DNA of 64,000 nt, taken from positions 29,080,005 to 29,144,004 of the forward strand of contig CAIIXF020000008.1 of the NCBI GenBank assembly GCA_903813345.2, given 5' to 3'. Of this stretch, positions 28,696-59,217 are shown piece by piece (position 1 is the stretch's first letter; each line of letters opens with the position of its first letter). The stretch is from Owenia fusiformis (taxonomy: Eukaryota > Annelida > Polychaeta > Sabellida > Oweniidae). Both the position numbers and the translations under genes were made by a program. Under the pieces are notes generated by a model that did no database searches, was not told the DNA's origin, and worked only from the letters and a program-made list of their open reading frames with translations.

Positions 28696-30254
28696 ATGAA
28701 ATTAAAAGTAAGTTAACTGCAAATTAATATGGAACATTTTACATGTAGCCTACAATTGATTTAGCTTGTATTCGTGAATGCAACTACGTCTGTCGGCTAC
28801 CGGATTAACCTACTATTTTATTGGAAATTCATTTGAATATGAATGGAATAGTGGCAGGAACTATTCATATTTAAATGAGGTACCCATAGAATAGTTGGTT
28901 AAACCGGTAGCCGTCAGGCGTTAGTTGCATTTGCGAATACAAGCTTAGTAATATTGATTATTACCAAGGCTTTCAGACTCATACCCAAGATTTGCCAAGG
29001 GGTGGTCACCTTTTAAAAAATCACTTAAAAGTGCTCAGAATGGTGAAAAAAATGGTGAAAAATTGCATGATATTGAAAGAATTTTTGGCCAGGGGGAGAG
29101 GAAAATCAACACCCTTTTTATTTTGAACTATATTTGTTTTTAACACTTTTAATAACACAATAAAAATATTGCATTAGAAAATATTGTTGATTTTCAAATT
29201 TATTTTTCAGAAATACTTACTCTTTACTGTGTTCTGCCAGACAATCCTTACTGTTTTTATGATCTACAAGGTGACACAAAAATATGACAACATCCAAAAA
29301 CCAAAGTCTTCGGAACACCATGTAGTTGAAAAATATATTATACAGCCGACATCTATGAACGGAAATAACTTTAACAACGGTAATTATTCCAAAACAATTT
29401 TCAATAATTATCATAACTCCAATATTGTATCAAACTGCATAACTGGTGATGCAACACGTCGTCGTAACGAATCAATCATGACCAAGGAGTTTACCGATAG
29501 AGGGAGCTCAGGTCAACCCGAAAATCCAGAAACGCGACAGAGATCTTTTGAAATGATATTCCGGGATAAAATTTGGATGGGGCACCTTAAGGATTCCACA
29601 TATTCCGGATTACAAGCCTCTGGCTTGGGATCAAACTTATTTTTTGCCCAAGAATTTATGGCAACCCTACACATTGTAATGAACTGGATTAAAGCCCAAA
29701 CAAAAAGTGACTTAATTAGTATATTGGATGTTGCCTGCGGTGATATGCAATGGATGAGTCGATTTCTCACCACACGTGATGACGTCATCTACACCGGACT
29801 AGACATTGTACCCGATCTAATAAATCATCATAAGAAAAATTACGAAAAATATAATTGGATATTTGCGACACATGACATCACTCTTGATGTTTTCCCAGGT
29901 CGCTATGACATCATTATCTGTCGCATGATGCTTCAGCATTTAAAACATCACGATGCAGTAAGAGCGTTGTCCCACATGGCAAATGCCAAATATATACTGC
30001 TGACAACATTTCCCAGAGTTCAAGAAAATATCGATCTTGACTTGGAGCAATCGGACAAAGGTCGAGTGAGATTTCTTAATATGGAGCTACCACCATTCAG
30101 TTTAGCGCCACCTATATGTTTACAGAGGGATGGACCTAAGAATGAGATCAATCATTTTGTTGGATTATGGCCCCTTCCTCTGAGGCAAATTGTGAAATGC
30201 AATTACCAGAAGGTCAAAATGTCAAACCCAAATATGAACGTCTACAGCTGCTAA
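28696..30254 (+). CDS. Type II membrane-anchored class I SAM-dependent methyltransferase (2 exons, 351 aa)
   Basis: Exon 1 (28696-28707) codes only M-K-L-K and ends at a GTAAGT donor. Exon 2 (29211-30254) follows a TTTATTTTTCAG acceptor in the same phase. The join gives a short basic N-terminus and then a hydrophobic segment (about residues 6-23, YLLFTVFCQTILTVFMIY), a typical Golgi type II signal anchor. A polar Asn-rich stem follows. SAM motif I is LDVACGDMQWM near 176-186, a post-I TGLDIVPDL follows, motif IV is YDIIICRMMLQHL near 236, then LLTTFP near 268 and NMELPPFSLAPP near 294. This order fits a methyltransferase family shared with bacteria whose members read 'CRD-x-L-x-HL ... LLTTTF ... 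LN-x-x-x-x-PF'. The substrate is unknown; a glycan is inferred from the topology. A MITE (28764-28944) sits in the intron. Confidence 0.85.
28764..28944. mobile_element. MITE (181 bp) with TTA target duplication in the methyltransferase intron
   Basis: Ends GCTTGTATTCGTGAATGCAAC and complement TTGCATTTGCGAATACAAGC are flanked by TTA (28761-28763, 28945-28947). The 3-bp TTA duplication suggests a PIF/Harbinger relative. Confidence 0.7.
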
Positions 30255-32423: not shown

Positions 32424-33030
32424 TAGTGACTATTTGTAAAGATCCGAGTGCCATGCTTGACCAGGAGAGTTTTAAAGTGGTTGACTGATGTGGCATCGAT
32501 GACACCCTGGGGGAGGGTTTTAAGGAACTTTTGACCATTTTGAACTCATACATCTTGAAAATTCTAAAAGAGGCACTAATATATTACTAACACCAACCGG
32601 TAAAATAGTTGAGCGGCACATGCTGAAATTTAGAGCCAGGTTATAAGAAAGTTGCTTTTCAAAAGTTTTCCTTGTATTTATTTAATCCAGATATTTTTTA
32701 CCTGTTTTGCATATAGCCCTTCCTGTAAAACACTGAAAAGTGCAGTGTCCCGTTTTGCCCCTGTCTTCCCCATATACCAACATCCTAGCTTCTCAAGTTT
32801 AGCAAAAAATTCCAGGTTTATTGGAAAGAATTATTCTTCCAAGATATACCTATATATATGTATGTCGATCCCATGTATTACAAGGCTTACGTGTGGAAGA
32901 AACTGCAAGATGTGCATAATTTATTCGAATCGTGCATCCAGGGGATCATCATCCAGGGTATGATGGCGCTATAAAATGCCATTACACGCATCTTTCACAT
33001 CTTAGACTAGAGAGAAGATAACAAGCATAC

Positions 33031-36000
33031 ATGACTATTTTGAGTTTGACAAGCGCGATTTTACTTTTATTCAGCCTCAAAAATGGAGCAGCTGTCCGTG
33101 ATGTTTTTCGTGAGTATTAAAATACAGCTTGAATCAGAGACAAGTGTTTTATATGTTCTATATATATTTTATATTTTGAAATTCTCTTGATTCTAAGCGC
33201 TAAGGCCTTAATCGATGAATAGATCGTATTTTAAAACAGGGGCATTGTATTGTAGCGATAGATCCCTGTGAACGGGCCCTACTGAATGGTGAAATCAAAG
33301 CTTTGAATTCTACCAAGACAAACCAGAATATTTGTAAATATTACAAGGTGAGTTATCTACATGTTTGAATGATAAATAGAATGGCTCTTGTTTGGTGCTT
33401 CATTAATGTCTGAGGTGAATATAAGAACAATCTGAGAAATATTAGGGAGCTTAAGCTAGCATATATAATCGAAACGCCAACCTACATGTATGACCAATCG
33501 CCCATACAAATGCATCTCTTATATTTTCCGTTCACGTTTAGGTTGTGAAAAACTTTGCAAGCTTAAACTCCTTATTACACACCGGAATAGCCTGACAACG
33601 GTTAAGTCAGATACCGTTGTCACAAATGGCGGATATAACCGTCGCTTCAATTAGATTTTCATGAACTGTATGTTTAATAGAGCAACTAGACTTTTCCTAG
33701 ATCCTTTGGAACAACAATCAATCAAAGTGTCTTTATACTCAGTGTACAGTTAATAATGTTTTACCATTTACTTTAACCGATCAAAATGAGATACGGGACA
33801 ACCGATACTGTATTACCATATGCCGTTGTCTTTGTAAATTATTTCAAATTCAGATTCCGTTGTCATTGACTATATCGAAGACGCTATATTATGGCGATTC
33901 ACGACCCAATTTGGAAAATGGGATTTCATATGCACATATATTACATTACATCACATTATGATGATGATACATCATTGCAATATTTTTTAGGTATAGAGAT
34001 CACCCATTTTGAAATGTATGTGCACGGATAAGGGGGACAGCAAATGCATATGTCCCTCACATAGATCAAATATAAAAAAATCACCAATGAAAAATTTAAA
34101 TAAAGATCTAGCCTAATAGGCATTTCATACTCCGCATTTAAAGTGAAGTGATTATTTGTCATGTTACAGAAGTTGGGTAAGGAATTATATGAAGCGCTAT
34201 TGACCTGTGACAGCTACACAGCAGACCTGATACAGGAATGGGTCTTGTCAACCGTTTTGGATTTGGAATTAGCAGAACCAAACAAAACTCAATGCGATCA
34301 TGGCGTTGAGAAACTATACGGTTTTCTCACATCTGGTAAGAAAAGTAGATGAAAGTAATATATGTGAATATTTGGAAGCACATTACACTTCTTATGAGAA
34401 TTTGGCCTTTAAAATATATAAAAGGATTCTGATAAGCTTCCCGTATAAAAACGGGATCAGCTCATTAAACCGACGCGTATTATACCGAAACCCATTATAC
34501 CGACGCGCATTATACCGAAACCCATTATACCGACGCGCATTGTGCCGAAAAGGCCTACCGATGCGCGTTGTACCGAAATTCGCGCCAGTGGGACGGCACA
34601 TTGCCTTAACCCATCAGTTTTATGACGTGCACTTCCGCGTGGGACTATATCTTTACAGCGGGAATTTCAAGTTTTTGTCAGTGTAGACATAAAAAGTTGC
34701 AGTCTTCATACTCGCGCGTTTTTCAATATTTTCATTTGAAACTCGCAAGAACGGTGCTTTGAATCTAGCTCTATACTCTTTCAAAACGTCATGTAGACAC
34801 ATAATTATGTACATGTATGACAGTATACAGTAACAGTATATAGGCATAGAATAATAAAACTGGAGCCTGAAAAGTCAAATATGGTGCTATGTTGAAAAGC
34901 TAAGAGAAATTATACTGTATCAGCATATAAAATAGATAGTTTATATTACTTTATCATACACCTTGGTTCAAATTATACGTGATTTTTTCTTTGAACAGAC
35001 AAGTCTTGAAAATTAAAAATCCATTTTTATTTACTTCCACAATATTTTAACTTTAAACTTTTTAATATGAAACTGAATGTAAATCTGTTGTTTATATATT
35101 CATATTCAATTAAAAGTTAATCGCGAAAAACATATTTTCAGATAAAGCTTAGTTTAAAATCTTCGAACATCTTTACATCTCAGTTGCGGCCAGAAATTTT
35201 TTAACTGATGCTAGGCGTTTCGGATTGAGGGGTCGTCTCAACAAACTTAATCCCAGTTAACCATCAATTTCTGTATTTGATAGAGGATAAAGTCATAATT
35301 CTGTTATTTATGTTTGATTATGGTAAACCCTGTACTTCATAAAATATATTTAACCGTGGTAAATTCTGTATTCAATGAAGTAAACATTTATTTATATTAT
35401 ACCGTATTGTTTCATTGGTAGAAATAAATAATTGTGCTATTAAATATAAAGTTTCACATTTCTTATTTAACTTGATAATTACTGTATTTCCGATCTTGTG
35501 CTGATGGGGGCCAAAAATTGTTGTCATGGAGAGAGAGCAAGATATGTTGTCATGGACATAGTAAGAAACGCATTCATTTGTTTACTTTAAATCTTTCCAA
35601 ATCCAAATGTGATTTTTATCTATGTGTGCCTCAATGATCCCAATAATTCTGAAGTTATCTCATTTTCTAACCATTTCACAAACATTTCTTTTCATAATAC
35701 TTCTAAATTGGCATCATGTCCATGTTTAAATTGCTCTCTATCATCAGTTTTCATTCCACAAACAAAATATCAATTATTTTGTCAAATATTTCAGTTTCAT
35801 TATTTTGAAACATTGAATACATGTTTTAATTGGCAGTTTAAAATGGTCCACGATTCAGCGCCCCTTTAATATCTGTTTAGGGGCAAATCAATACTAAACT
35901 TAGCAGGTCACACAGTTGCCAACTCCCGATTTAAATCGGGAGATTCCTGTTTAACCCATCTCCTGCGCAATTTTGCCATCTCCCGATTTTCTAATTTTGT

Positions 36001-39000
36001 AATTTTTCATCATCTCCCGATTTTTTCTCCCGATTTCTACAAAAAACTTCGCATGTTTTAGGTAAAAATCCCCCGATTTTGTCTGTGTCCTCCCGTTTTT
36101 TCCTCCTACCTCCCGATTTTTAACTTAAATCCGAGTACTCATCGATCGTCTCCAGTATCTTACATATAAGTCAATTAACTCCAGCGACATCTAATCATGA
36201 AAAACAAAGTTAATCTAATATAAATGTTCAATCAACAACAAGGAAATTAGCGCACGCGTAACAATTTTAATCAGTAAGAGCGAATCCATCCTTTATTACG
36301 ATCCTAGCGCATGCGTATTACGTAGATAATCTCCTGAGTGGAGGCGATAAGAATCTGCGCAAGTATGTCCGTGAAACGGGGTAAGAATAATTTTGTCTAT
36401 TTATGCACGATTGTGTAAGCCTACCAAGATTAAGCATGTATATACATTAAGAGAAATCATGTTAAATAAGTTTGAATGATTTTACCATTGAAGTTTGTCA
36501 AAGATTGAGATTTATCAGTCACATTTACGGTAAGCTTTTTCCATCCTGGACCAAGGAGGATTGGCTCCCAGAATGCAACATCGATACCGATACTCCCTAT
36601 GTCGTGACTACAAAATTCGAATTCAAACTGCATTTTCGTTTGAAAATAAGACCAAAATTAACGATACAAATGTTGAAGTGAATAAAATAGCGGCTGTTTG
36701 AATTCGAATTTTGCAATCATGACATCAAGAATATCGACAGAGTATCGATGTTGCATTCTGGGAGCCAATCCTCCTCCTCTCCTGTTTTGACAGAAGATCT
36801 CCTGTTTTTTACTTGGTATCTTTACCAAGAGAAACTTCCTGTTTTATAAAGAAGTCTCCTGTTTTCTCCTGTTTTTAAAGAAAATATCCTGTTTTCTCTT
36901 GTTTTTAAGGAAAATATCCTGTTTTCTCCTGTTTTAAAAGAAAATAGCCTGTTTTCTCCTGTTTTTAAAGATAATCTGTTTTCTCATGCTTTTAAAATAA
37001 ATTGTTTTCTCCTGTTTTTAAAGAAAATCTCCTGTTTAGACTGAAAATCTCCTGTTTTCTCCTGTTTTTTAGATGGTAACTTGTTTTCTAAAAGAAGTCT
37101 CCTGTTTTCTCCTGTTTTTTAAAGAAAATCTCCTGTTTAGACTGAAAGTCTCTTGTTTTCTCCTGTTTTTTAAAAAAAGTCTCCTGTTTTCTCCTGTTTT
37201 TTTTTCAGTAAAAGTCTCCTGTTTTCCTCCTGTTTTTTGCAAAATATCTCCTGGATTCTCCTGTTTTATTTCTTCGCTGAGAGGTTGGCAGGTATGGTAG
37301 ATGACCTGGTCATCTGATTCTCAATTTGATTTTGATTTGAATTGATTCTCAATTGGGACCCATAGTGACTTTGCTCCACCGTTCTTGGTTGAGTTTAAGT
37401 CATGGCTCTAATTGGTACACAAATTAAGCTACCAACGAATGCTGTTTTTACTCCGGGGCCTTGTCATAACTAACCAAAACAATGGTGTGGACATTTCTGG
37501 ATTATTTCCGGTGTTTCCTTTTGTTGCTACCTAATTTCTCAAAGTATCCATGCCAATTTCTTGACTCTGTTGAAAGCCCATGGTTCAATCAACCGTACCT
37601 GTTTATCTTATGATAACCGCATAAAATGATAGAGTGTGGGAACCGACTGTGCCAAATGCTACGGATATTGCAGCTATGTGTGTTGTGTTTTCAAGTGTTA
37701 TTCTATGTATGTCCGACAAATCGAATTATGGTTTTGATACTATCTAGATGTATTTAATAGTATCTATTTGTCTCGTTCATTCATTTAAAAATCATAACTG
37801 CCTGGAAAGTAATATGAATAAAGTATGTAAATAAATGAATTAAAACGTCAAATTAAGAAGCAAAAGTCTTTTCTGGGTCACTGCGAATGGCATGATTTCC
37901 TCGAGTCTCTTCAGTTGCAAGGCAACCATACTGGGACCGATTCGCGTCGTTCCACTACTGCCCTTGGTGGGGGCCCGCTACCATACTATATGACTCCCGG
38001 AGTTTACTAAAGCACGTTAGTGGAGGAACCAACCACAGTCTCACAATCTGTCTCCGGCAAGAGCGGCCAGAGAACCAACCCATGCCAAGGGCCGGTAAAC
38101 GGTTGGACCTTCGGACCGGGTGTCCGTAGTGACAATGATCAACAACTCCGTACCTGGGGCTCGAACGCGGAACCTCCGTATCCCACGACGTTCAACCGCA
38201 AAGTAGCCTCAGTCTACGCCACTAGGCTACCCTGCTTAGGTGTCAAAACTGCTAAAAAATAATGTAGTTGTTACAATTATTTGCTTGGATAAACATGATA
38301 TTACATTTCTCAATTGATTAATCTGATTTAGTTGGAATGGAAGTCCGACAAATAATCAAGGCAATGCAATCAACAACTCTTGCAAATGTGAATGGGAGTC
38401 GTGAAGACAGAAATGACAAGAATCGTGATCAATGTAAAGTATAATATTCAAGACACGTCTTTGAATATCGGGTAGGAGAAACATTCCAAAATGAAGAATC
38501 ATTTAGAACATTTGATTTGTTGCCAATATATCAATTGCGTCTCAAATTAATGAAAAAGGGTATCACGGGCCACGAAAGCCGATGAGTGAAATCAATTATA
38601 ATTGACGCATCTAGATCGCTCAATATAACGGTAAGTGAATAGGTCAGTGTAGATACGTCGAGGAAAATAAGCTATTTCGACGCTTGAAATAATCTGATTA
38701 CGCTTATTAATAATTACGCGTGGCTATTAAACACAAATGTTGTGTAGAACAAAAACAAGAAAACTGAACGACCTATTAAGGAACTGTACTTCAGTTTCAA
38801 AGTGTTCAAGATATTTCCGCATGTTCAAAAACACAAAATTTATATTTTAGGCTATCCATATTTTGTCAGATATCTCCAATTCATATAACATGGAAAACAT
38901 AATCATGTTTCCAAAAATAATTTACACTCGCTATTTAAAATGAGGCATGGACACAATAACAGAGAATAGCCTAGTGAAGGCATCTACCTAATAGTGGTTT

Positions 39001-42000
39001 TTCCATATAGCTTTGAAATCTCGTTATAGTCTCATTTAATGAGATTTTAGGAGATCTGCATTTTAAACCATTAAAGACTAGCATTTTCTTCTATTTGAAT
39101 TCTGTGTGTAATTTTCTATCAAAACAACCTAGTTTTTGCACTGTTATTTACCTTTATTCAAATTCTAGAGATTTTCTTGTTTTCTAAAAATGGTCGGGCT
39201 AAATCCGCATTGACAAAGTAAGATACATTGGTAATAACCCAGATGCGAGTAGAAATAATCTTGATTTACGTCATTAAAAATTAAAAATTCAGTCAAAGTA
39301 ATATCATATTTGAAATCTACATGTAAAATTACATCTAGAAATGTGGTTTTAAAAAGTGTTTTTCAACTTTGAAAAATTAATTTTCTTTGAAAATGTGACT
39401 TCTAGCTCGGGGAGATTCCCCATAGACCCAATGCTATAAAATCGCAAAAAATGAAATATCTTTTCTTTTAGTGGACAGATAATATTTTGCTTCACTGGAC
39501 ATATTTTCATTCGTATAAGTATCAGGCACATAAGGATTATATGAAAATTGAGCCACTTAAATTGATAATATTCAAGTTTAAGGGGACATTCTTATATACC
39601 TGCCATGTTAATTGACCCGAATCAGCCACCTGGTGGTGAAACTGGTACCTACCTACTCGCATTTGGGTAATTAAACAGGCTTTCGTCATTGTAACAAAAG
39701 CGAGGGGCTTAGTATATAAATTACAGCTTCATTTACAAAACAAATTCCAAGTCGAAGAAACTTATTAAAACTAGGCTATATTTTCTAGCTTTGGGCCAAA
39801 TTATAATCTGCAACTTGACTTATTAGTAGGTTTAAATCCAGAAGGCAAAAAATTCGTAACCAGGAAGTTCATCCATTTTGTTACAATGACGTTCCGTCAA
39901 AGGAGCTAGTTGTTGAACAGTGATTATGGCATTCGGAATAACGCCTTTCGGTACAATGCGCGTCGATACAATGCGCGTCGGTATAAAACACTTCGCCTCG
40001 CCTAGTATTTTTTTCCTCGGATAGGTATTCTGGCATATCCACCTCATGGTCATTCAGTATTTATTTCATTATGCACCTCCCTAGAGAAATACTTTATTTT
40101 AAAGAATGGGTCTACTAAAACAGAAGCCGAGCCTAGTATTTTTTCGAGGATAGGTATTCTGGCATACGGAATGGTTGGATATCTCGTTGCTTTAATACTG
40201 GATAGAACGAGATCTTACTGCCACGTATGGCAATAGACCCTGTAGCTCTTAACCAATCAGATTTGAGTATTTTAATGAGGCGCAAAATAAAATGGGTTTC
40301 GGTATAATGCGCGTCGGTATAATGGGTTTCGGTATAATGCGCGGACCCCATAAAACAATATGGCGGCTCCAGGAGAGTCAACTGGATCAGGCCATTTTTT
40401 AAAAATAAGGGGAGTTTTGTAAAATCCAGTTTATTGAAATTGTCTTGGAGATAAAGAAATCCGTTTATCCGTTTATAATGATTCTGAGAAGATTATTGAG
40501 AGAGTGACAGTTCAAAGAATGCATGTACAACAACCAATATAAATCCTTGTGTTGAAACAGAAACAAGCGTTCGATTTGCTAAACGATATGGGTCGCCCTT
40601 TAAGTGGTCATTTTTATGCGTGTCATTTGCTAACTGGAAAAGTAGTTGAGTGGATTTGTTAAAAGTAAAAGTCTTGCCAAGAGCATGCACAAGAAATTAT
40701 ACATGAAATACTTCATCATATTCCTCAAATAAATCGTTTAAAACCTACATCGCAGTTTTCCCTTCAAATAGTTGATATACGACAACGTAAATCTTAAGTG
40801 TGCAGTACACCCATATATTTTGTCACTGTACGATGTCGACTATTAGGCGTGCCGGAGTAGAGTGAAATATTTGTTTTATTATACCCATGTCCGTCATCGT
40901 CTGTTGATTCCAATTCATATATTCGACATCGAGATAGATCTGCCGTGATCCCTGTCCTGGTTTCTGACTTCGCAGAGATAGTTCTGATTTTGTATCCAGT
41001 TCACATTTTTGCACGTTTTGCACTGAGTATCGTTCTAATTTCCCAGTCACGTAAAGAACATATAGTGTGGGAGCAAAAGTCCAAATAAGAGGTTCCGTGT
41101 CCTTTTTAGAGGCGAGCTAAAAAGAGACCCTAAAAGTGGGCGTGGCATATTTACTTGGTTACCATAGCAACGCCGTCGCGGATTCAGAATTGCCAACATA
41201 ATTTTTCTTGGTAAGTATCACGTATAGTTCCTGAAAATATATGTCGCTTAGCTCGCCTCTAAAAAGGACACGGAATGACCTTTGCTCCCATACTAATAGA
41301 CCAATCAGAGTGTGAGGAATATGACAGTGATATAATGTCTAATATTTTGAAATTACAGCCAATAAAGAGATAGCAGCTAAAAGCCTTGCAGGTAAATGAA
41401 ACTATATTATATTTTTTCCATAATACTACTGTTTTCCCTGGGAAATAAAATCATATTATGGAATAAAAAGGTTATTTCATGCTTGATTTTCAATATGAAT
41501 TTTATTCATATTGAAAATCAAGCATGAATTTTATTCATATTGAAAATCAAGCATGAAATAACCCATATATATTATATTACATTATATTATATCATATTAT
41601 TTTATATTGTATTATATCATATTGTATCATATTATATTTATTATATTATATTATAGTATAATTATGTTAGTTAATAATGATATTTTATTATATCGTACAA
41701 CTTGTATTATATTGGATTGCAACATTACACATTGTATTATATTATATATTAATTGATATAATATATCGGATATAGTCCTGAGTTAGGACATTAGCGGTTA
41801 CCGAAAGTGATTTGGTTTTCTGAATAAAAAGTCATTTTCTCATTCCCTACCTCATTGGAGCGCCATCTGGCGTTTGGGAAGTGAATCGGGACTAAATATT
41901 TATAATTTATCTGAAAACTTGTCAGAGTTCAGTCGGAAATCTCATTTTAAGCTGGCGGTGGAGGAATTTTGACCTTGGTGATTTTAATTGTGTTAAATCA

Positions 42001-45000
42001 TGTATTATTTTTGTACTGAGGCTGATTTTGATTGAATATTTGCTATGATGACACACTTGCCCTCTTATTGTTATGTACATTACATTACCACTCAGAAGTA
42101 CATTATTTTATTGTTTCAGCTTTTACCGACACCATGGTGACATTTACACGCGAAATCTTGAACGAACTGACGAAAGATCAACTTGCAGCGTACACTCAGA
42201 ACGACAGTTTTTGCACTATCACAATTGCCTGGTGGAATGGTGAGATATTCCTTTCAAAGTATTGAATCGTAATATAATAATCATCTACCACGACTTACCG
42301 TCCTCCTAAGCAGGTGTCCAGAATCCATACCTCCTTCTTCCCCCGTGCTATAACTAATTTGGAAGCGCCCGATTAAACTGAATCACATCATCTAATTATG
42401 CGCCGATATATTAGGGTGGCTCAAAATAATTTTATTTTGGAAATGTTATGCTCCCTACGTGAATCGAGTTGCATTTTGGGGTAAATATCACCTGTGATTT
42501 TTTTCAAATTTTTTAGTCAACTTTTAGGGGTCCCCCACGGCCTTTGAAGTTTGCCCATAGGCTTAACATTAGTGGGCGTCGCCCAAAATCGTACTTTGTT
42601 GAAGTTTTCTTCTAGAGTGATTTATATATGTTGTTTGAAGAAAAACAACATTGTATATGATATGATTAGATGTTTAAATCATCATATTACTCTGTTTCAT
42701 CATGTGAACTTATATAAAAGGTTATACTTACAATATCCTATTAACAAAATATTAGGTACATTCGACCAATATAATTTTTTGAACAAGTACAGTTTTAGAG
42801 AATCATGTCTCATATATGATTTGGTATTGTCAATATAATGGTTTAAACTGTAAAAGGTATATTCATTCTTGACATTTAATGTTTTAAACATGGTTCAGAT
42901 CAGACTTCTTATATGTGACACTCTTCCTCTATGATCTGAGCGTACAACACATACATTGTCACGACGCGCCGCGTCAAATGTCATTTGAGATATTCCTGCA
43001 GATGATACCAGAACTTGAGACCGTGAAGAGGTGCTGTGGTTGTCAAGGGGGCACTTAGGAAATACCATCCGTAGAGACAGACCACAAATCCCACAAGTTG
43101 TGTTATCCTCTGCAGTTGCTGTGGAGTAAGTTGGACTGAGCATGAATATCTTCAAGAGGTAGAGACTCTTCCCCATGAACCTGGCATGGTGGTAGGCTCC
43201 GGGTTGGTCGCAGCTCTTCGCAGTGTAAGACAGAGCAAGAGAGGAGAAGCAGGAGCTTGCTACAGCATTGCTCAACATCCCACGGCCTGTACAATTTGTA
43301 ACTGGCAAACAAGGACAGCCTGAATTCAACCCAGTTGCTGCTCGCTTAGGCTGAATGTTAAACCATCACTAGCAATGTTTGTAACTGAGAGATCTTGGCT
43401 CTTATCGTGACAATGTATGTGTTGTACGCTCAGAGCAACTTATGTTCAATCCCAGAATTTCTGTCAAGACCTGCATTCTGTTAATGATCCAGCTGAACGA
43501 GCAGTGAAGCTGGTACAGGAATGCTCTCAAGTGACCCATGATGCGGCGCATTGTGACAATGTATGTGTTGTACGCTCAGATCATAGAGGAAGAGTGTCAC
43601 ATATAAGAAAATCTGATCTGAACAATGTTTAAAACAGTAAATGTCAAGAATGAATACACCTTTTACAGTTTAAACCATTATAATGACAATACCAAATCAT
43701 ATATGAGACATGATTCTCTAAAACTGTACTTGTTCAAATAATTATACTGGTCGAATATACCTGATATTTTGTAAATAAGATATTGTAAGTATAACCTTTT
43801 ATATAAGTTTCCATGATGAAACAGAGTAATATGATGATTTAAACATCTAATCATATCATATACAATGTTGTTTTTCTTCAAACAACATAAATGAATCACT
43901 CTACAAGAAAACTTCTACAAATTACGATTTTGGGCGACGCCCACTAATGTTAAGCCTATGGGCAAACTTCAAAGGCTGTGGGGGACCCCTAAAAGTTGAC
44001 TAAAAAATTTGAAAAAAATCACAGGTGACCCCAAAATGCAACTCGATTCACGTAGGGAGCATAACATTTCCAAAATAAAATTATTTTGAGCCACCCTACG
44101 ATATATATATATCTATGTTGCGACAGCGAATCAAATTGCGAGTTCTTAATCGGGGAAATACTAACTGCTTATCGCAGGGGGTAAAAAGAAAGAAGTATTT
44201 TGGATTTTGAAGCCCTGTGATCGGAGGATGCGACTAACAAAATTGTACTATTTAGGCCCGATCACTTCGTTTGTAGGATGCAACTTCAAGAATTGCTTCG
44301 TATGTGATTATCCCCAATACCAGTATTTTTATTGAATCGCATGCGCATCGTACACAAGTGCAATATTTTCTCATCAAAATGGGTAGTAGTATACAAACGA
44401 GGGTAAAAAGAGTGACGCAATTTGCCACAGGATTTGAATATACCATCAGAAAGGGTAACGTGTCAGATAAAATAACATTATGGAAGTCCGCTAGTTTTAC
44501 AACAGTGTAGTCAAAAATGTGAACCCTTGTAACAAACCTTATCACAGTTTTTATCCCCATTAATGGGCTCATATTGTCACGTGTTTTACAGGAGTCTAAA
44601 GTTTTTTGTGAGTACCATAAAGGTCACTCAGTTTTAAATCTTGCAGAAGTTAAATGGCATCAACAATAGACGAGCATGGTCAATCGCCCCCTGGCTATCG
44701 CACTCAGGCAATATGATATTTTCCTTTGCCATTATTATATTTTCCTAGAAAAAATTTATATTCCCTCCCTCCCATTACATAATCTCTATATATTTTACAT
44801 GGGGGTAGCATGTTCGGTAATCAACGGTGACACTAACCATCGACAAGGTACAGTGACAAAATGTACCGTAACTAGTACACTTTAGATGTACGATGTCACT
44901 ATTTAACCGATTTGAAGCAAAGACAATGATGCAGGTGTGATGTAGATTTTAAAAAATTAATCTTGGGAATACTCGAAAGATTCAATGTTTAATTTCGTGT

Positions 45001-46459
45001 GTATTTGTTTAGGAAGACATTTAACTTTCTAATAACGTTAAAAGATTTTCGAACAGTGCTCGATTTTTTTCGTAGTCAATCTACCAACGAAAATTGAACG
45101 GTTGGAAAATGTTGGGTTTTTCACATTTCCTTTGATCATTTTTTTCCCCTGTTGCTTAGAGTGTCGATTATTTTTATTGGAGTATGTTTCTCTATACTAT
45201 ACAATTTAGGACGGGTGGAGATGAATACATTTTCAAGTATTTATGGTTATTTAAAAAAATCAGAAATGTGCGTTGTCAACTCGAATGTACGTTGTCCCTG
45301 TAATTGAAATTCATGAGATATACGAAATATTAAACAATGTAATGATTTCATTTCAAAATTTATAAGGTTTCATGAGTAACGAGTGATCTTTAACGAACAT
45401 GTTCAAGTATTCCTTTTGCTTTTTCATTTTATGAAAGTAGCTTCCAGTCCAAACTCCCATCCAGTACTCGTGTCGTGGAATAGGATATGTTAAAGACTAG
45501 CACTGCCATGGAGTCTGCTTCCAGCCTGTTTGATTATTTGGCCTTACATTTTGTTAGTTACATTGACATATAGATCTACTGATCTATCTTAATGAATATG
45601 ACTTTTTAAAATCCCGTTTATGATATATCTGGATAATTTCAAATTGAAGTAATTCTGTAATTGTTGTGTTTCAATTTTAAATGCATTTGACCCCCTTGTC
45701 TGTTAGTGTTATGAAAAATACCATGTCTGCATTAGGGTTAATTGTGAATTGATTAAGTTCAATGGGACAACATACATTCGAGTTGACAACGTACACCTGT
45801 GATTTTTTAATTTATGGCCAAAATGTTAATACTTATTAAATCTTCAACAGACCTTAATTGTGCTGTTTAAAGAAACATATTCTCATAGACGACAGGGGAG
45901 GAAATGATCAAAGGAAATATGTAAAAACACAACATTTGCCAACCGACCAGTTATATGATTGGGTAGATTGACTACGAAAAAATGAGCACTGTTCGAAAAG
46001 CGTTAAACGTTATTAGAAAGTTATATGTCTTCCTAAAGGAACACAAAAAATCAAAACTGAAATCCTTAATGCATTCCTCAGATTATTTTTTAAAACCAAC
46101 ATCAAACCTACATCATTGTTTTGCTTCAAATAGGTTGAACAGTGACATCGTACATCTAAAGTGTACTACGGTCTATATTTTCTCACTATTCCGTGTCGAT
46201 GTTTAGGCGTGGTATTGTATTATATAATATGTAATTGCGTTGATGAATAAGATTACTTATCACAAATAATGTTTTTGAATGATCAGATATGGCGACACGA
46301 GTGGTAAAATATGCAAAGGGAGAGGGTGCTACAGTTACGTCTCACCAGGAAATGATTCTGCGTGGACTTGGCTTGATGAATGTTGACGTCAACAGAAAAT
46401 TGAACAAGGACTTCCCAACCCTATGCTCGATGACCCCCCGATGTCAGCTCTTTAAGTAG
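33031..46459 (+). CDS. Secreted 209-aa cysteine-containing protein of unknown family (5 exons)
   Basis: Exons 33031-33109, 33256-33347, 34170-34335, 42120-42239 and 46287-46459 sum to 630 nt and join in frame (phases 1, 0, 1, 1) at GTGAGT, GTGAGT, GTAAGA and GTGAGA donors with pyrimidine-rich AG acceptors. The N-terminus MTILSLTSAILLLFSLKNGAA is a clear signal peptide, with likely cleavage after A21. The mature chain has seven Cys (31, 53, 70, 99, 144, 199, 205), two N-glycosylation sequons (N44, N95), and several stretches that look amphipathic-helical (about 58-92, 113-138, 170-192). The stop is TAG, with AATAAA 65 nt after it. I do not recognise the family. Small size, signal peptide and helical content would allow a helical cytokine-like or other extracellular factor, but that is speculation. 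Intron 3 (7.8 kb) is filled with repeats. Confidence 0.76.
34468..34590. repeat. Short array of 'ATTATACCGACGCGCATTAT' units
   Basis: About five units of CGACGCGCATTATACCGAAACCC type in tandem. Related inverted arrays are at 39935-40005 and 40290-40350, and degenerate units are at 2185-2420. Confidence 0.7.
36554..36776. mobile_element. Foldback element with AGGAGGATTGGCTCCCAG ends
   Basis: AGGAGGATTGGCTCCCAGAATGCAACATCGATAC and its complement close the element. The interior has a second inverted pair (AAATTCGAATTCAAAC/GTTTGAATTCGAATTT). Same ends as 1253-1378. Confidence 0.7.
36772..37275 (+). repeat. Irregular minisatellite 'TCTCCTGTTTTCTCCTGTTTTTAAAGAAAA'
   Basis: About 15-20 units of variable length. 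The 75-codon ORF at 37073 is only this repeat read through. Confidence 0.85.
37885..38240 (-). mobile_element. tRNA-derived SINE candidate (right arm, inverted copy)
   Basis: This is the reverse complement of 24130-24485 with few differences. The small ORFs reading MEEPTTVSQSVSGK in both arms lie in this SINE and are not genes. Confidence 0.6.
39231..39674. mobile_element. MITE candidate with ACCCAGATGCGAGTAG ends
   Basis: Inverted ends at 39231-39252 and 39656-39674. Its inner segment, GAGCCACCTGGTGGTGAAACTGGT with flanks, recurs at 53818-53970. Confidence 0.55.
40290..40350. repeat. 'GGTATAATGCGCGTCGGTAT' short array
   Basis: Three units, inverted relative to 34468-34590. A related pair sits at 39935-40005. 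Confidence 0.65.
41065..41293. mobile_element. TA-flanked MITE (229 bp)
   Basis: GTGTGGGAGCAAAAGTC and GTTCCGTGTCCTTTTTAGAGGCGAGCT pair with their complements at the right end. TA lies on both sides. Confidence 0.7.
41490..41780. repeat. AT-rich simple repeat and short palindromic duplication
   Basis: Two units of TGAATTTTATTCATATTGAAAATCAAGCA precede an irregular (TATTATA)n tract. Confidence 0.8.
42412..44098. mobile_element. 1.69-kb DNA transposon with 8-bp target duplication, in intron 4 of the secreted-protein gene
   Basis: CGATATAT flanks both sides (42404-42411, 44099-44106). Ends are TAGGGTGGCTCAAAATAATT and complement, and inverted arms run about 480 bp. The core has GC-richer DNA. 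One frame at 43417-43632 reads VNDPAERAVKLVQECSQVTH, which resembles a motif I associate with uncharacterised animal transposon-linked proteins (VNDxAERxVxLxQEF). The 8-bp duplication and TAGGG end fit hAT. Confidence 0.72.
44828..46207. mobile_element. Foldback element of about 1.38 kb in intron 4
   Basis: Inverted arms cover TTTAGATGTACGATGTCACT, TTCGAACAGTGCTC, CGTAGTCAATCTACC and TTTCCTTTGATCATTT; an inner pair is GTTGTCAACTCGAATGTACGTTGTCCC. A related end lies at 40795-40860. It ends 80 nt before exon 5. Confidence 0.65.
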
Positions 46460-46974
46460 AAATCACCACACCTGTGTAATACACGATTTTTGAATGTATA
46501 CTGGTACATGAGGTTAATTTGAAAAATAAATCCTCGAATTGATTGCATACTTAAACTGCTTTCTAACATGAATAATTCAAACTCAACATAAAGATATATC
46601 GGGTATTACATTTTGACAAGTATTTTCTCAGCAATTGAGTATCCTTAGCAAGTTTTAAGGATATAAACAGATTAAGTGTTTGAAATGCTAGTTCCAAGAA
46701 ATTCAAAATAGTATGTCAAAAATCCCATGAGCTCTGCGCCGAGACCTTCATAGTGTTTGTGTCAGCTATCACAGGTGATGACATCCGTCAAACAATCACC
46801 CTATATACAAATTGTATGTTGTTTATAGACTGTTGACAAAGAGTTTAAAAGCTGTCAAAAATAATTGTTTTCGTACAGTCTTTGAAATGCACAGTCACTC
46901 CCAGTATATATACACATGTCATGTAGATTCCAGCTCCAGGTCTCTGATTAAGCTTAACGACTGCAGGAGTCAGG
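46460..46974. other. Intergenic, no gene seen beyond the poly(A) signal
   Basis: AT-rich; no ORF with coding character. Confidence 0.5.
46525..46530 (+). terminator. Poly(A) signal AATAAA for the secreted-protein gene
   Basis: A perfect AATAAA starts 66 nt after the TAG stop at 46457-46459. It supports this as the last exon. Confidence 0.65.
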
Positions 46975-51681: not shown

Positions 51682-54600
51682 CTATAATCTGTTAATTTGT
51701 TTTTGGTAACCTAGTTCATCATACAGGCCTGAACACCGTTCATCAATATCCCTCACTAAACTCCTTTTAAGCGTATTCTTCCAAAGATGTACTGAAGAAT
51801 TTTTAGACTTGAGCCCCAACATCTTTTTGTGATATGGATAGAAGGGTAATCCAATAAATTCCATTAGAGCCTCAAATGTCTGTATTGGGTTTTTAGTAAC
51901 ATCTTCGTATTTTAACTGCATAAACATGTCTGGGTACTTATTTTCAAGCTCTCGTCTTATCCTTATATCCTTTAACATACGTCCACACAACGAACTGATA
52001 AACTCTTGTTGAGCAACTAATGAATAACTTGGAAATTTTGTCCATTCTGTTTTAAAACGACTGTTAATTTCTCCCCTTGGATCTCGGAGAAGATGGATAA
52101 CTTTCACATTGTCTGAGCAGTTTAGTCTCTGGACGAAGCGGGTGAATCCTTCCATTGTACCTCGAACTTCTTTAGCAAGTACCACCTTGAAATATATGCG
52201 GATGAACAAACAAGTGCAAATATGATCATGATCAGTAGTAGCAGTAGGGTAACCCATTTTTTCATAGACTTATACAATGGCGTTTTATGTAATACTGCGA
52301 TGTTTTTCGATTGCGATATTTGGGTTGATTTCATTTTCAGTTCAATTTATTTATACAAGGGGCGATCCATATATTCTGATAAAAATGCTCTCATTTTGTG
52401 ATTTTTTCACATATCCCTCTCATTTTTTCAGAAAATGTAGATTATGTAATTACACATACAATGCTAAAATATTATTACTATATCTTAAATTATCAATGAG
52501 ATAAGGTTGTCATGGTAACATGTATTAAGGGTAGGCAGGTCAATTAAATTATAACATATAAATATCATAATAACTTGTTATTTTAATTAATTTAAATCAT
52601 GCGGAAATCATGCATTTTAAAAAAAAAGTTTGGTCACAATAGCATTGTTGGACAGAATGGGCCAATTGACATTACATGTAATGAGACACACCAAAAATCA
52701 AATTGTCAGATGAGGTTAATGTGACTGATGCAGAGTGTGACATTAACGGATACATTAGGGAATACCATTAGATATTATTTAATATAATAAGAGGACACTA
52801 TCCTATAAGTAAGAGGACACTATCAGAGACATACGTGGACTCATTAAGTGCATGGGCAAGGTGTTATATCTGAATAAAGAATCTATAGGTAGTATTGTAA
52901 AAAGGAAGGCATGGTCACTGTTGAAGATAATCCACAGTCTGGTTGCAAGAAGAGCTTGCGGACGGAGAATAACACGACGATAAATCGAGATGTTACTTAT
53001 GAAAAGATAGCTATCCCACTGTATAAATTATCAAACAAGGGCAACAGGGGTATGGAACAGATCAATGAATAGTTGGCAATGGCTGGAAGATGCGTTTGAG
53101 CTGCTTAAAATAGGTACCGAGGAATGATTAAGTTAACATATTTATCTATTTTAGATGTTATAATTTAACTGACCTGCCTACCCTAACTACCGGTTACCAT
53201 GGCAACCTTATTTCAAAATTAATTTAAGATATAGCTAAAATATTTTAGCATCGTATGTGTAATTACATAATCTACATGTTCTGAAAAATTGAAAGGGATA
53301 TGTGAAAAAAATCACAAAATGAGAGCATTTTTATCAGAATATATGGATCGCCCCTTGTATAATCCCCGATATCTCCGATACTACTCATAATCAAAGTAAC
53401 ACCATTATATATGTCATTGTAGGAATTTAGTCTTATTTTCTTTACTTTATTACTATTTCTAATGTAATTCAAAATTGGAATTGTTGGATATACGTTTGGT
53501 CATAGAAGGGCATCAGTACAAATAAAATCCCATATTTTCTGAATAGCAAGGTTTTATTAACGATTCCTTCAATTGTTGACCTCAAATTTCTAGTATTTCA
53601 TTTTAGATCATCAGAAAACCAAGAGGGAATATATCTATCATGCATCAAATCTCCGATGCATGAGACCATAGCTAGTTCCACTACCAATATGCTTATAATG
53701 TTTGAATGATAAGAGAAGCCACAGAGTCTGAGTGCTAAAGGGTACAACCATACCTAAGTCTTATTTTAGATTCAAATTTCTTTTACTGGATTTATTTTAA
53801 TTTGCATAACTATTAGATACATATAAGGGTGACATGAAAATTGAACCACTAAAACATATGAATATTCAAGTTAAAGGGAACTTTTTACTACATCCGCCAT
53901 GCTATCTGACCCGAACGAGCCACCTGGTGGTGAAACTGGTAACTAATCGTACTCGCATCCGAATTATGGATCCTATATCCCAACCTTTATTTTAAGAATC
54001 ATTAATGATGCAACCCGTTAGTTGGTTGAAAACTCCAGAAAACCTATCCAGAATATATCATACATAGAACAACTCAGTGATCTCCCCAGCATTAAAGCAA
54101 GTGGGCGCAGCACCCACCTGAGATTTTGAAAATAGGCTTGCACCCACCTGAAAATCCATTTGCACCCACTTGAAAATTAGAAAAATCATGAAAAAGTGGC
54201 ATATTTTGACCAATTCCAGTCTGAATTGTGAAAATGTGAATTTTGCACCCACCTGAGAAAAAATCCTGGGGAGATCACTGCAACTATTAACTAAACAACT
54301 ATCTTTGTTAATATTCTCATAAACTTTGATTTATAAAGTTCAAGAGCTCACCTGAAAGGAGGACGGAATGTATCGCAACAGATTTCAGAGAGTTATAGGT
54401 TGGATTTCGACTTTTTTCTGTGGATTTAAACAGGTGCATATGTTAGGACAATGCATTACCTCAAGGAAAAAACTCTTTGAGATGATAAAATAATTTCAAC
54501 TTTGAGATAGGGAAGGTGCAACCCACCCGCATGTTTTTTCTGAAATGTTGTCCCGATTTTCAACCCTTTAAAGGAATTGGTAGTTTCCCATGTTATTTTC

Positions 54601-56638
54601 CCATAGGGAAAACTTACGTGATGCATTGCTTTCAATTTAACTTTGGTCACTCATAATGGTTATCTTTAAAACACCTAAAGGAATTACTTATTCCTTTGAA
54701 GGGGTTAACTGTGTGTCAAAACGCAACATATTGATGCAACAAAAAATTGAATTTTTGTCCCGACCCCTAGAGTACTTAAACGTCCGCTGGGGGGGGGGGG
54801 GGGGTAACACATATTTTGCCAGTTCACGTGTTCAAGAGTCAAACGAACACGCTTAGATAATTAATAAACATACCAATCTCGATTTGCATAATCCAAGTAC
54901 ACTTTGTATACAAAAATCTGTTTTATTGATGCCGAATGGATTCATTTCACTGTTGGTCATACATTTTGTAAACCCTTCCATATACACATCAGGATATTCA
55001 GGATGAGGTGTGTGCAGGATTGGATATCTCATAATGTCAATCTCCTCCGGGAGTTGGTCCAACTTGCACAGCTGAACTTGCCTGTAAACGTCAGCCTCCA
55101 ACTCCAGCCATTTGTCGCTGATATTATTCCGTCTTGGGAATTTCATTTCCTTAAATGGAAGAGAGCTCGGATTTGCAGTATTATCAGGGTTTGTATGTCG
55201 GCGTTTCACTTCAGGCCAAAGTGGAGCCTACTTCTCAAAGTAGAGGATAGATAGAGAGATCGAATGGAATGGAGTTAAACAAAATAATGTTATTCCTACC
55301 AGTTATGTATTTCAACGTGAACAAATGGCCGATTTACAAAATGCCTAACGTCTCAATAACTTTCTGTGTTGAATATTGTCCAAAAGTAAGGTGATGTCAT
55401 GTCACCATAGCAACCGTAACTCTACCTGAGTTTCATAATCTTATTAGAAACTTTACAGTTTTAGTTGCAAAAGATGGACAATTTTGAAGACAATATTGAT
55501 GCAGATTTAATAAAATGCCAAAACTTTGGAAACTAGAAGACAATGGATGTCATCGATTGTTAGAAATCTAGTTTCCAAGATGATTATGAGAGTGTCTGCC
55601 CCCATATAAATCAAGGAACACATCTCACATCTATTGTAGTGATGTGTTGTGGACCAACCAGATTCGCTTATGCGAAGTAACAGGATTATTGTGCATATCC
55701 ATCTGTTTCTCTGAGGCAGGTGTCTAGATGTTTGGAATCAATATGTTTCAAATAACTATACAAATTGATTCTCTTGATAGATGAATACCCTTATACGTGG
55801 AAAAGTCTACATGTTTCACAGTTATACACATATGAAATTAAAAAACTGATCTATGTCTGGCCGTAGCCGCTTATTATATCAATGTCTGACCATCAGACTG
55901 CAGATGACATGAAAATGATTGATATTTCGTATATTCGTTAAATGAGCCAGGGCACAGGAAAGGGGGTCTTATCACAGATTGTTTCCATATTTTGATTTTT
56001 CAAATGAGCCATGTATGTAAATAATGAATACCTTTTGGACCTGTGGATTCAGGGGCTCGTATACATAAAATATGGAGGGATGTTGGTCCATGGCTGCCCC
56101 CAAAAAGCTAGATCCAGATCTTTCGTATGAGAATATTAGCACAAACTTTTGATCACTACACCCGTCCATCAGTCTTGATATGTGATCTGTTCCCGATATA
56201 TGATCTGAAAAATGGCAATATGGTGAAAAGTAGAATGGAACACTGTATTCTTTTTGTATTCCACGTGAATCATTTAAGAACGTTTCTTTCATTGAATAAT
56301 CTATGTTTTAAATAGTTGGTGACAGTACATGTACCAATGAGAGCATATAGTTTAACTACTTCATATTTTACCACTCTTTCGATATCCCTTACGCGAAGTA
56401 AGATAATTTATGAAAATATTCCCATTCTTCAAATGCCCATATTTGTTTACCTAGAAATTTGTCTTTTGAAATCAAATCTAAAAACACGTAATTAAATTCG
56501 CATTTCTTTTTATCTATCCAAAAGTAAATGTAATTTACCTTTTGTCAATGTGTGTTCTATTCCAAGTAATATGTAATGGCCTGTTGCTAAAAACAAAGCG
56601 AAAACAGTAACTCGTCCAAAGAGCTTCTCCGATATCAT
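51682..56638 (-). CDS. Carbohydrate sulfotransferase, Golgi type II (4 exons, 408 aa)
   Basis: Minus-strand exons 56539-56638, 56032-56300, 54874-55227 and 51682-52185 sum to 1,227 nt and join in frame (phases 1, 0, 0). Exon 1 (MISEKLFGRVTVFALFLATG...) gives a short cytosolic tail and a signal anchor at about residues 10-27. The 5'-phosphosulfate loop is SYERSGSSFLG (91-101). EPLNP follows, then the conserved 'VLAKEVR' strand (243-249), and the 3'-phosphate site is HLLRDPRGEINSR (272-284). These are the CHST/GST family signatures: sulfate is moved from PAPS to a sugar hydroxyl, in the Golgi lumen. The length fits the family (about 390-480). Acceptor sugar and linkage cannot be read from sequence. 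The last intron holds a Tc1-like element. The exon 4 acceptor is a rare AAG. Confidence 0.92.
52356..53357 (+). mobile_element. Tc1/mariner-like element relic (1.0 kb) in the sulfotransferase intron
   Basis: Long inverted ends of about 200 bp start CAAGGGGCGATCCATATATT and are flanked by TA. The core reads, with breaks, IGSIVKRKAW then VEDNPQSGCKKSLRTENNTT, which matches the DNA-binding region of Tc1 transposases (SIV..R...G.VED.PRSGRPR). No DDE region remains. Confidence 0.7.
53818..53975 (+). repeat. Dispersed repeat shared with 39540-39665
   Basis: The block GAGCCACCTGGTGGTGAAACTGGTA and about 100 bp before it match directly. It lies in the sulfotransferase intron. Confidence 0.65.
54789..54804. 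repeat. Homopolymer of 16 G
   Basis: Sixteen consecutive G in the sulfotransferase intron. The length may be uncertain in the assembly. Confidence 0.9.
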
Positions 56639-57871
56639 GTTGCCCCAACAACTCATAACCTTACAAGACATCATGAATAAATTGCTTTTTTGGTTGATAT
56701 GTTAAGTGAACTGCAGTTTAGATGTTAATTTCTCAGTTCAGAAATCTAACTAATGTATGGTTGCACAGCAATCTCATTAATGATCTTTATGACATGAATA
56801 TGTGGATTGCCAATCATATCTCTACTATCTTTTATTCAGCATGGTAAATGTTTATCGATCATATTTTATTTAATAGCATTTATTGCATGAATAGTATATT
56901 ACAATTAACAAAGTGTAATAATGTCAATCGCCCTGAGGCATTAAAAACATATTCACAAATAGATAAAATACATACAGGCAATAACTTGATTGGAAAATAA
57001 ATGTAAAAAAGAATTTAAAAAAGATGTGATAAAATGAATGAGTATGAAGAATGAAATGATGATGGTGAAGGTGACACTAGGACATGAAAAGCATGTTTAC
57101 AAAGTCTGATCAACCTCTGTTTGATGATTCTATAAAATCTGAAACTGCGTGTGCCAGAGATTCATTTGTTTTGAAATTCATTTTATTAGAATTTCCAAAC
57201 AGAAGTAATTTAACTTTGTTTGTCATATTCATTTGCTTGAAATAATCAAACACATTGAATTTTGCAAGCTCTACGAAAAGTTTGTTCCGTTGGGGGTTGT
57301 ATAGGGTGCAATTGAGAAGGAAATGTTTGCTGTCTTCTATTTTATTTCCACATGAACAAGCTGGGGATAAGACTGAATTAAAATTGTGAGCAAAGAAGTG
57401 AGCATTTAGAAATAAATTTTAGTAGTTGGAATGATACATGTATATATTTTCATCCTGAATGGAATTCTTAAGGCGATATTTAAAATGCAAGAATTCTTTT
57501 ATTTGGAGAGAGATTGATCAACATTATTCCAAGAGCTCATAAGTTGGAATGATGGAGAGTTTAATAACCTGGCTGATATATTTCCAGGTACCTTATAGTA
57601 TCGCACTCTTCTCAACTGAGTGTTGTTATGATCAGCTAAATAGGCATTGAATACATTTGACACATATGAAGGTTTCATCTTATTAAAGACTTTAAACATG
57701 TACAAGAGTTTATGGTAATTTCTTCTAGATTCAAGAGTTTTCCAGTTCAGGATGTCAAAAACTTTAATTTTGCTTGATCCATGGATGACTCCACTTATAA
57801 TACAACCAGCTTTATAATGAGTGCTTTCGAGTTTGGCCAGCTCAAATTTTGATGCCGCTGCATAAAATAAA

Positions 57872-59217
57872 TCACCATGGTCTAAAATCGGCAGATGAAG
57901 GCATTGTAAATTTTTTCAAGATGTCTTGAGGTAACTTTTTAGAGATTGCCTTTAAGCCATTTACCATATTTTGATACTTATTTGACACATGTCTAGCATG
58001 GTCATTAAAAGTTAATTTGTGGTCAAAAATAACATCAAGATGCTTATGAGATCGAACCTTTGGAATTTCATCTTTTCCAAGAAATAAGGGTGCAAGGTCG
58101 GGAGCTTCTTGCCTAGATTTAATAAACGTCAAATCCGCACTTTTTGAGGCTTTGAAAAATAACTTCCATGTATCAGACCACTTGGAAATCAGATTCAGAT
58201 CATTTTGAAGAATAGCCAGTGAGTGATTTGGATTTGCTGGGTCAAATTCGCGAAAAATGGATGTATCATCCGCATAAATACAACACAGTGATTTAACTAA
58301 GTCTGGCAAATCGTTGATATAAATGAGAAAAAGAAGTGGTCCTAATAAAGAACCTTGAGGAACCCCTGCATTTACATAGTGATCTTCAGAGGGTTCGGAT
58401 AAATTGCCATTGACGTTAACAAAAAATTTTCTGTTTGAGAGATAGGATTTGATGAGATTTACAGTGGGTTGATCAAAGTTATACTTTGCAAGTTTATAAA
58501 GAAGTAGGTTGTGGGGAACAGTGTCAAATGCAGCCGCTATATCTAGGAAGATCCCTTTAACATTATTACCTGTTTCGAGCCGCTGATGGATAAATTCTGT
58601 AATTGCAACAATTTGGTCTTGCGTGCTGTGTCCCTTTAAAAATCCAGATTGAAAGTTGTATAGTAAATGGTTATTTGTCATATGAAATATCATATTCTTA
58701 TATATGATTTTCTCGAGAACTTTAGAGAGAGTATTTAGAAGAGTTATCGGCCTGTAATTATCAGATTTTTTAAAGATCGGGCATACCGATCCGTTTTTCC
58801 AAATTGTAGGAAATGTTTGATCAAGTAGTATTTGGTTAAATAGTTTAGACAAAGGTTTTGATAAGGATTTTGTGAGCACATTTGAAGCATCTTGTTTGAG
58901 ATTTTGTCTGGGCCACATGCTTTGGATGTGTCAAGATTTTTTAGAATTTCAAATATTTCATTGTCATTTGTAGATAAAGCTTCACTTGTGATGTTGCAAC
59001 GCATTGGAAAGTTTGGTAGAGTAAAAGATTCTACAAAGGTTTTGATAAGGATTTTGAGCACATTTGAAGCATCTTGTTTGAGATTTTGTCTGGGCCACAT
59101 GCTTTGGATGTGTCCAGATTTTTTAGAATTTAAAATATTTCATTGTCATTTGTAGATAAAGCTTCACTTGTGATGTTGCAACGCATTGGAAAGTTTGGTA
59201 GAGTAAAAGATTCTGGA
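57872..59217 (-). pseudogene. Reverse transcriptase region of the non-LTR element, broken
   Basis: The longest open part (57872-58918) carries palm motif A FLDIAAAFDTVPHNLLLYKL, motif B VPQGSLLGPLLFLIYINDLP and the catalytic YADD (YADDTSIF). The start is frameshifted near 58880, and a 184-bp tandem duplication (58849-59216) disrupts the region. A frame with GPDKISNKMLQ lies in the duplicated part. Confidence 0.88.

What the first reader, a model, noticed from the sequence alone, without database searches (positions are those of the whole stretch)
33031..46459. Orphan secreted protein gene, 5 exons, 7 cysteines
Five short exons spread over 13.4 kb join to exactly 630 nt with signal peptide, two sequons, a stop and a nearby AATAAA. 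No exon passes usual ORF-length filters as a gene. I could not place it in a family. Predicted helices and size would suit an extracellular signalling factor.
Basis: partly seen in the sequence, partly recalled or inferred. Interest (0 to 1): 0.75.

Follow-up and report, generated by a model that had tools for sequence, protein, structure and literature searches.

The report
New secreted disulfide-rich protein gene family
The five scattered exons look like a real gene for a small secreted protein, one of at least eleven related gene copies in this animal's genome that match no protein family we could search, so it belongs to an undescribed family of unknown job rather than being a lone orphan or a proven signalling factor.

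Summary
The five exons lie at the stated coordinates, join to 630 nt and encode 209 aa with 7 cysteines, followed by AATAAA. There are three sequons, not two.

The gene is not alone: I count 10 further loci in its genome: C8 10.63-10.68 Mb (4), C8 19.54-19.56 Mb (3), C12 (1), C1 (2). Exons found there keep the same order, exon 3 is 166 or 172 nt, and cysteines are shared. Six of 7 genes with an exon 1 have a TATA box 61-74 nt before the ATG. This strongly supports the gene model.

None of 10 family proteins passes a Pfam cut-off. The window protein and two family profiles match no PDB sequence. Three of four introns split codons, unlike five-exon IL-10-type genes. The fold stays open.

Best reading: a family of secreted, disulfide-bonded proteins expanded by duplication, more likely extracellular effectors or binding proteins than four-helix cytokines. 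Function is inferred; no transcript was seen. Side result: promoter plus signal-peptide exon look exchanged between very different copies.

The parts
32920..32943 (+). upstream element shared with the C12 gene and one C8 gene
   Evidence: 3 matches of the gapped pattern in the genome, all just upstream of family genes; 0 for the reversed control. The pattern was designed from these genes.
32970..32975 (+). TATA box, 61 nt before the ATG
   Evidence: TATA at -61 to -74 in 6 of 7 genes with an exon 1 (not in c8b_1)
33031..33109 (+). exon 1: start codon and signal peptide (by sequence look), 79 nt, donor GTGAGT
   Evidence: aligned with exon 1 of relatives
33256..33347 (+). exon 2: 92 nt, holds C31 and C53
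   Evidence: conserved cysteines
34170..34335 (+). exon 3: 166 nt, holds C70 and C99 and the LIQEW-type core
   Evidence: same length in c12_1, c8a_1-4, c1_1 and c1_2, 172 in c8b_1-3
42120..42239 (+). exon 4: 120 nt, holds C144
   Evidence: relatives
46287..46459 (+). exon 5: 173 nt with stop, holds C199 and the extra C-terminal cysteine
   Evidence: relatives
46525..46530 (+). AATAAA polyadenylation signal
   Evidence: an AATAAA 46-111 nt after the stop in 7 of 7 genes listed
34474..40343 (.). stretch of intron 3 bounded by inverted minisatellite-like arms
   Evidence: pairs I1 and I6 (96%)
42406..44104 (.). intron 4 foldback element with long inverted arms
   Evidence: pairs I1-I3 (92-97%)
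44873..46168 (.). second foldback element in intron 4
   Evidence: pairs I4-I7 (73-94%)

Best explanation
The exons form a protein-coding gene, a long single branch of a multi-gene family so far seen only in this genome (no other animal genome could be searched). The protein enters the secretory pathway through the exon-1 signal peptide (inferred) and should fold into a compact, helix-leaning unit (inferred). Six of its seven cysteines sit at positions shared with other members and could make three disulfides; the two cysteines present in the nine other aligned members at columns C121 and C161 are both missing here, which suggests that these two pair with each other. The seventh cysteine lies in a short C-terminal tail and could stay free or link two molecules. 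A TATA promoter with a family-specific upstream element suggests expression in a defined secretory cell type (inferred). Most likely job (inference): an extracellular effector or ligand-binding protein released at an epithelial surface or into body fluid (defence, mucus, tube or similar), in a family expanded by duplication. Shown: exon model, related loci, shared cysteine positions, shared promoter. Inferred: transcription, secretion, disulfides, fold, function.
For: Gene model. Related loci: with models. 22 invariant columns over 8 aligned members and 9 over 9 with a C1 member. Purifying selection in the c8b trio (dN/dS 0.22-0.30) and the C1 pair (0.33); window against the c12/c8a/c8b members 0.52-0.71 at dS 0.89-1.07. 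The c8a/c12 group changes fast (0.78-1.44) with open frames; no pair is significantly above 1 (largest Z 1.27). TATA in 6 of 7, AATAAA in 7 of 7. Upstream element. Promoter plus exon 1 of c8a_4 matches 6 places in the genome, all family genes. Joint absence of cysteines: window lacks C121 and C161, which 9 of 9 other aligned members have; the c8b trio lacks C144 and C199.
Against: No RNA evidence. My exon finder required the phase pattern 1-0-1-1, so shared phases are partly imposed. c8a_1 has a disrupted exon 5; exon 1 was not found for c8b_2 and c8b_3, nor exons 1-2 for c1_2 in the stretch searched. Both C1 copies keep C144 but have no cysteine at C199 in the alignment, though they have one further on, so the C144-C199 pair is unsure. 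The tree places the window gene on a long branch whose place the tool calls unsure. No confident fold. No direct evidence for any function; sequons are not conserved.
Confidence: 0.5

Rival explanations
1. One reading: an extracellular signalling factor with a helical-cytokine-like fold, acting through a cell-surface receptor.
For: Small, probably secreted protein with cysteines and some predicted helix. The window gene has no close duplicate in the search listing, as is usual for a hormone gene.
Against: Three of four introns split codons, unlike the five-exon IL-10 family, IL3, IL21 and IFNL1 genes (PMC2654155, passages). Clustered copies and a quickly changing mature part in one group. No Pfam match over a cut-off.
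Confidence: 0.15
2. A carrier protein that binds small hydrophobic ligands (pheromone, lipid or odorant carrier), working like insect odorant-binding proteins without being one.
For: Helix-leaning, cysteine-rich, probably secreted domain; clustered gene copies.
Against: Cysteine positions of the window protein (31, 53, 70, 99, 144, 199) lack the C-x3-C step of insect odorant-binding proteins (motif recalled, no call). No profile match.
Confidence: 0.2
3. A reproductive protein (gamete surface or seminal), whose fast change reflects sexual selection.
For: Near-neutral change in the c8a/c12 group with intact frames.
Against: The c8b trio is under clear purifying selection. No expression data.
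Confidence: 0.12
4. A chance assembly of open stretches, or a decayed gene, with no product.
For: Exons are short and spread over 13.4 kb; introns 3 and 4 hold repeat elements. One family copy is disrupted.
Against: Similar exons in the same order elsewhere, shared promoter element, intact frame and splice sites.
Confidence: 0.03

Closest known systems
The host's own 10 related loci (C8, C12, C1)
   Same: Signal-peptide exon where found, exon order, exon 3 of 166 or 172 nt, C31 and C53 in 9 of 9 and C70 in 10 of 10 aligned members that have the exon, LIQEW-type core
   Different: Window protein is 34-38% identical to seven of them and 22% to one C1 member. It lacks C121, C161 and C171 and has an extra C-terminal tail with one more cysteine. 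It spans 13.4 kb against 3.7-11.1 kb in the six other five-exon models
IL-10 family and interferon-lambda genes (five exons, secreted, helical)
   Same: Number of coding exons; similar protein size (recalled)
   Different: Those genes split no codons (PMC2654155, passages); here three of four introns do. No sequence match.
Stanniocalcin (Pfam PF03298)
   Same: Secreted and cysteine-rich (recalled); a short stretch looked alike from memory
   Different: The Pfam model passes its cut-off at one place, on C9, and none of its 7 listed places is a family locus; no match

Membership tests
IL-10 / interferon-lambda type helical cytokine | five exons with no codon split by an intron | tested here: not met
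   (exons 2, 4 and 5 begin at phase 1) against PMC2654155 passages
IL-10 / interferon-lambda type helical cytokine | four-helix-bundle fold | tested here: inconclusive
   exons 3 and 5 alone, mean pLDDT 55.3 and 50.6; the whole protein was not folded and no fold search was run
Any Pfam family | match above the curated cut-off | tested here: not met
   0 of 10 family proteins. Best hits: window Costars 12.1 bits against 24; c8a_4 CBM-like_2 16.7 against 27; c8b_2 Plus-3 17.1 against 27
Any family with a solved structure | sequence or profile match in the PDB | tested here: not met
   Searches (window protein; profiles A1, A2): best E 0.71, 0.36, 0.58
Stanniocalcin | match to PF03298 | tested here: not met
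   1 of 7 listed places is over the cut-off, on C9; none is a family locus. The search is exon by exon, so weak matches can be missed; window protein also unmatched
Insect odorant-binding proteins | six cysteines with a C-x3-C step (recalled, from no call) | tested here: not met
   cysteine positions
The paralogue family described here | exon order, C31/C53/C70 core, LIQEW-type exon-3 core | tested here: met
The paralogue family described here | transcribed and secreted | not testable with these tools
   no RNA or protein data

The most novel reading that the evidence does not exclude
A new, animal-lineage-restricted family of secreted disulfide-rich proteins with a fold not yet seen, whose promoter plus signal-peptide exon has been passed between copies as a secretion cassette while the mature exons diverged almost beyond recognition; the window gene would be a single-copy branch that kept the promoter element.
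Probability: 0.15. Interest if true: 0.65.

Novelty: new member of a known kind. Interest (0 to 1): 0.4.

Why it matters
Small multi-exon secreted genes of this sort are easily missed by ORF-length filters and by homology annotation. Here a single candidate leads to a whole family that I could not place, with a common promoter element and testable disulfide pairs. If the promoter and signal-peptide exon really moved between copies, it is a clear natural case of a secretion cassette exchanged among diverging secreted proteins. Lineage-restricted secreted families are common in animals (general knowledge), so this is useful but not startling.

Tried and rejected
Stanniocalcin: a resemblance in exon 3 that I remembered, rejected. 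Pfam weak hits (Costars, CBM-like_2 E 0.0077, Plus-3 E 0.0081, SLFN_GTPase-like, others) each occur in one or two members and lie below their cut-offs where these are shown; PDB hits (thermonuclease, keratin, others) have E of 0.36 or more; all taken as chance. Viral and prokaryotic contigs: 47 and 81 pattern stretches, none a relative by tblastn. Literature: a search for annelid, orphan genes, secreted, cysteine-rich and lineage-specific together gave 0 papers; Owenia with tube, secreted protein and gland gave 2 listed papers, neither read. COX1, sought to name the organism: no match. A tree test on promoter plus exon 1 could not separate its two trees (AU 0.485 and 0.515), so the order of events in the C1 gene is open. 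Positive selection in the c8a/c12 group: ratio above 1 in some pairs, not significant. Weak genome matches on C3 (E 0.69), C6 (E 6.1) and C8 17.93 Mb (E 5.3) were not followed.

Rows dropped: c8a_1 (disrupted exon 5) is in no alignment, tree or rate count of proteins (its promoter and exon 1 DNA was compared). c1_2 is and the rate count, but not in alignments A1 and A2; c1_1 is not in A1. The search lists hold only scored candidates, so the count of 11 loci is a lower bound.
Full report
What is there. The N terminus looks like a signal peptide; no dedicated predictor was available. There are three N-glycosylation sequons (N44, N95, N140), not two. A TATA box lies 61 nt before the ATG and AATAAA shortly after the stop.

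Where it is from. The window lies in a 498-Mb genome of 525 contigs. Of contigs C1-C12 I saw the length of seven (C1, C2, C3, C8, C9, C11, C12: 34.9 to 62.2 Mb); matches beyond 28 Mb show that C5, C6, C7 and C10 are large too; C4 was not seen; C13 is 0.66 Mb. This fits the annelid Owenia fusiformis, reported as 505.8 Mb with 12 chromosome-scale scaffolds (PMC9977687, passages seen). It is an inference, not an identification.

It is a family. A search of the same genome with the window protein found, besides its own exons, similar exons in three other regions. Searches with relatives added two loci on C1 and a stray signal-peptide exon. In all I count 11 loci, a lower bound: the window gene; one on C12; four on C8 near 10.63-10.68 Mb (c8a_1 to 4); three on C8 near 19.54-19.56 Mb (c8b_1 to 3); two on C1. 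Seven have a complete five-exon model (window, c12_1, c8a_2, c8a_3, c8a_4, c8b_1, c1_1), exon 1 of c8b_1 resting on weaker similarity. Two (c8b_2, c8b_3) have exons 2-5, one (c1_2) has exons 3-5, and one (c8a_1) has a disrupted exon 5. My exon finder demanded the window's phase pattern, so shared phases are partly imposed; similar protein sequence up to the splice sites, the exact 166-nt exon 3 in the window, c12_1, c8a_1-4, c1_1 and c1_2 and the stops were not.

Conservation. The eight-member alignment has 22 invariant columns, including C31, C53, C70, C99 and W81; with the C1 member nine remain. The window protein is 34-38% identical to seven members and 22% to the C1 member. A tree of 10 rows groups it with the c8b trio (98/99), but on a long branch whose place the tool calls unsure. 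Synonymous change exceeds amino-acid change in the c8b trio (dN/dS 0.22-0.30) and the C1 pair (0.33); the window gene against the c12, c8a and c8b members gives 0.52-0.71 at a dS near 1; within the c8a/c12 group the ratio is 0.78-1.44, none significantly above 1 in the mature part. About 4.5% of single-base changes would make a stop, so open frames in that group despite 81 to 126 differences per pair point to selection; the copies were, however, chosen as intact.

Cysteines. C31 and C53 are in 9 of 9 aligned members that have exon 2, and C70 in 10 of 10. C121 and C161 are in the nine other aligned members and both missing in the window protein; C144 and C199 are both missing in the c8b trio. 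Joint absence suggests the pairs C121-C161 and C144-C199. Against the second pair, both C1 copies keep C144 without a cysteine aligned at C199, although they have one further on, in poorly aligned sequence.

Control region. TATA is found at -61 to -74 in 6 of 7 genes with an exon 1, the exception being c8b_1. An upstream element, written as a gapped pattern from the window, c12_1 and c8a_4, matches 3 places in the genome, those three; the reversed control matches none. A 206-base probe of promoter plus exon 1 of c8a_4 finds 6 places, all family genes: the four c8a copies, c12_1 and c1_1; the window gene and c8b_1 are not among them.

An unexpected pattern. Promoter plus exon 1 of the C1 gene differs from c12_1 and three c8a genes at 17-23% of sites, yet exons 2-5 differ at 60-63%. 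The DNA similarity runs from roughly 130-150 bases before the ATG to about the end of exon 1, at most some 26 bases into the intron. In two pairs tested, exon 1 differs at 5 and 2 of about 19 synonymous sites, while the mature part is saturated, though its alignment is poor. Exchange of a promoter-plus-signal-peptide cassette between loci is the simplest account (inference); protein-level constraint alone would not hold synonymous sites. A tree constraint test was uninformative.

What it is not, as far as tested. None of 10 family proteins passes a Pfam cut-off, and neither the window protein nor two family profiles match a PDB sequence. Stanniocalcin, a lead from memory, passes its cut-off only at a place on C9. 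No relative was found in viral or prokaryotic contigs. IL-10 family, IL3, IL21 and IFNL1 genes also have five exons, but no codon is split (PMC2654155, passages), while here three of four introns split codons. No eukaryotic collection was available beyond this genome and the PDB sequences, so relatives in other animals may exist and the gene may already be annotated in its genome project.

Fold. Exon 3 gave three helices at mean pLDDT 55.3 and exon 5 short helices and strands at 50.6. These are too poor for a fold search, and none was run. A helix-leaning composition (43% helix, 20% strand by simple propensities over 9 members) is the other support for the helical claim.

Why the exons are so spread. 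Introns 3 and 4 carry inverted-arm and foldback elements (34474-40343, 42406-44104, 44873-46168). The C12 relative spans 3.7 kb and the window gene 13.4 kb.

Verdict. Very probably a real gene of a secreted-protein family that I could not place; the orphan label is wrong within its own genome and the signalling claim is unproven. My best functional reading is an extracellular effector or binding protein; this is inference from family behaviour.

Noticed in passing
L018 2149-2227 and upstream (C1) against c8a and c12 genes: Promoter and signal-peptide exon similar while exons 2-5 are almost unalignable; looks like cassette exchange.
   Followed up: partly
window 42406-44104 and 44873-46168: Two foldback elements with inverted arms inside intron 4.
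   Followed up: partly
window 34474-40343: About 5.9 kb in intron 3 bounded by inverted minisatellite-like repeats.
   Followed up: no
window 57110-60461, minus strand: LINE-like run of broken frames; reverse transcriptase domain in the frame 57872-58930, E 6.2e-34.
   Followed up: no
window 16166-19315, plus strand: 1049-residue open frame with no Pfam match at E 0.01.
   Followed up: no
window 29178-30254, plus strand: Open frame with a methyltransferase domain (Methyltransf_25, E 1.6e-9).
   Followed up: no
window 51682-52269, minus strand: Sulfotransferase exon (Sulfotransfer_1, E 7.7e-11); minus-strand frames at 54853-55227 and 55972-56307, without a Pfam match of their own, may belong to the same gene.
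   Followed up: no
C8 near 10.631 Mb (c8a_1): Family copy with a disrupted exon 5, either a pseudogene or an assembly error.
   Followed up: no
C8:19589607-19589672, minus strand: A further copy of the c8b-type signal-peptide exon, about 27 kb upstream of c8b_3 on the same strand; it may be the missing exon 1 of that gene.
   Followed up: partly
L018 about 8600-8690 (C1): Open stretch that reads like another signal-peptide exon downstream of the C1 gene.
   Followed up: no
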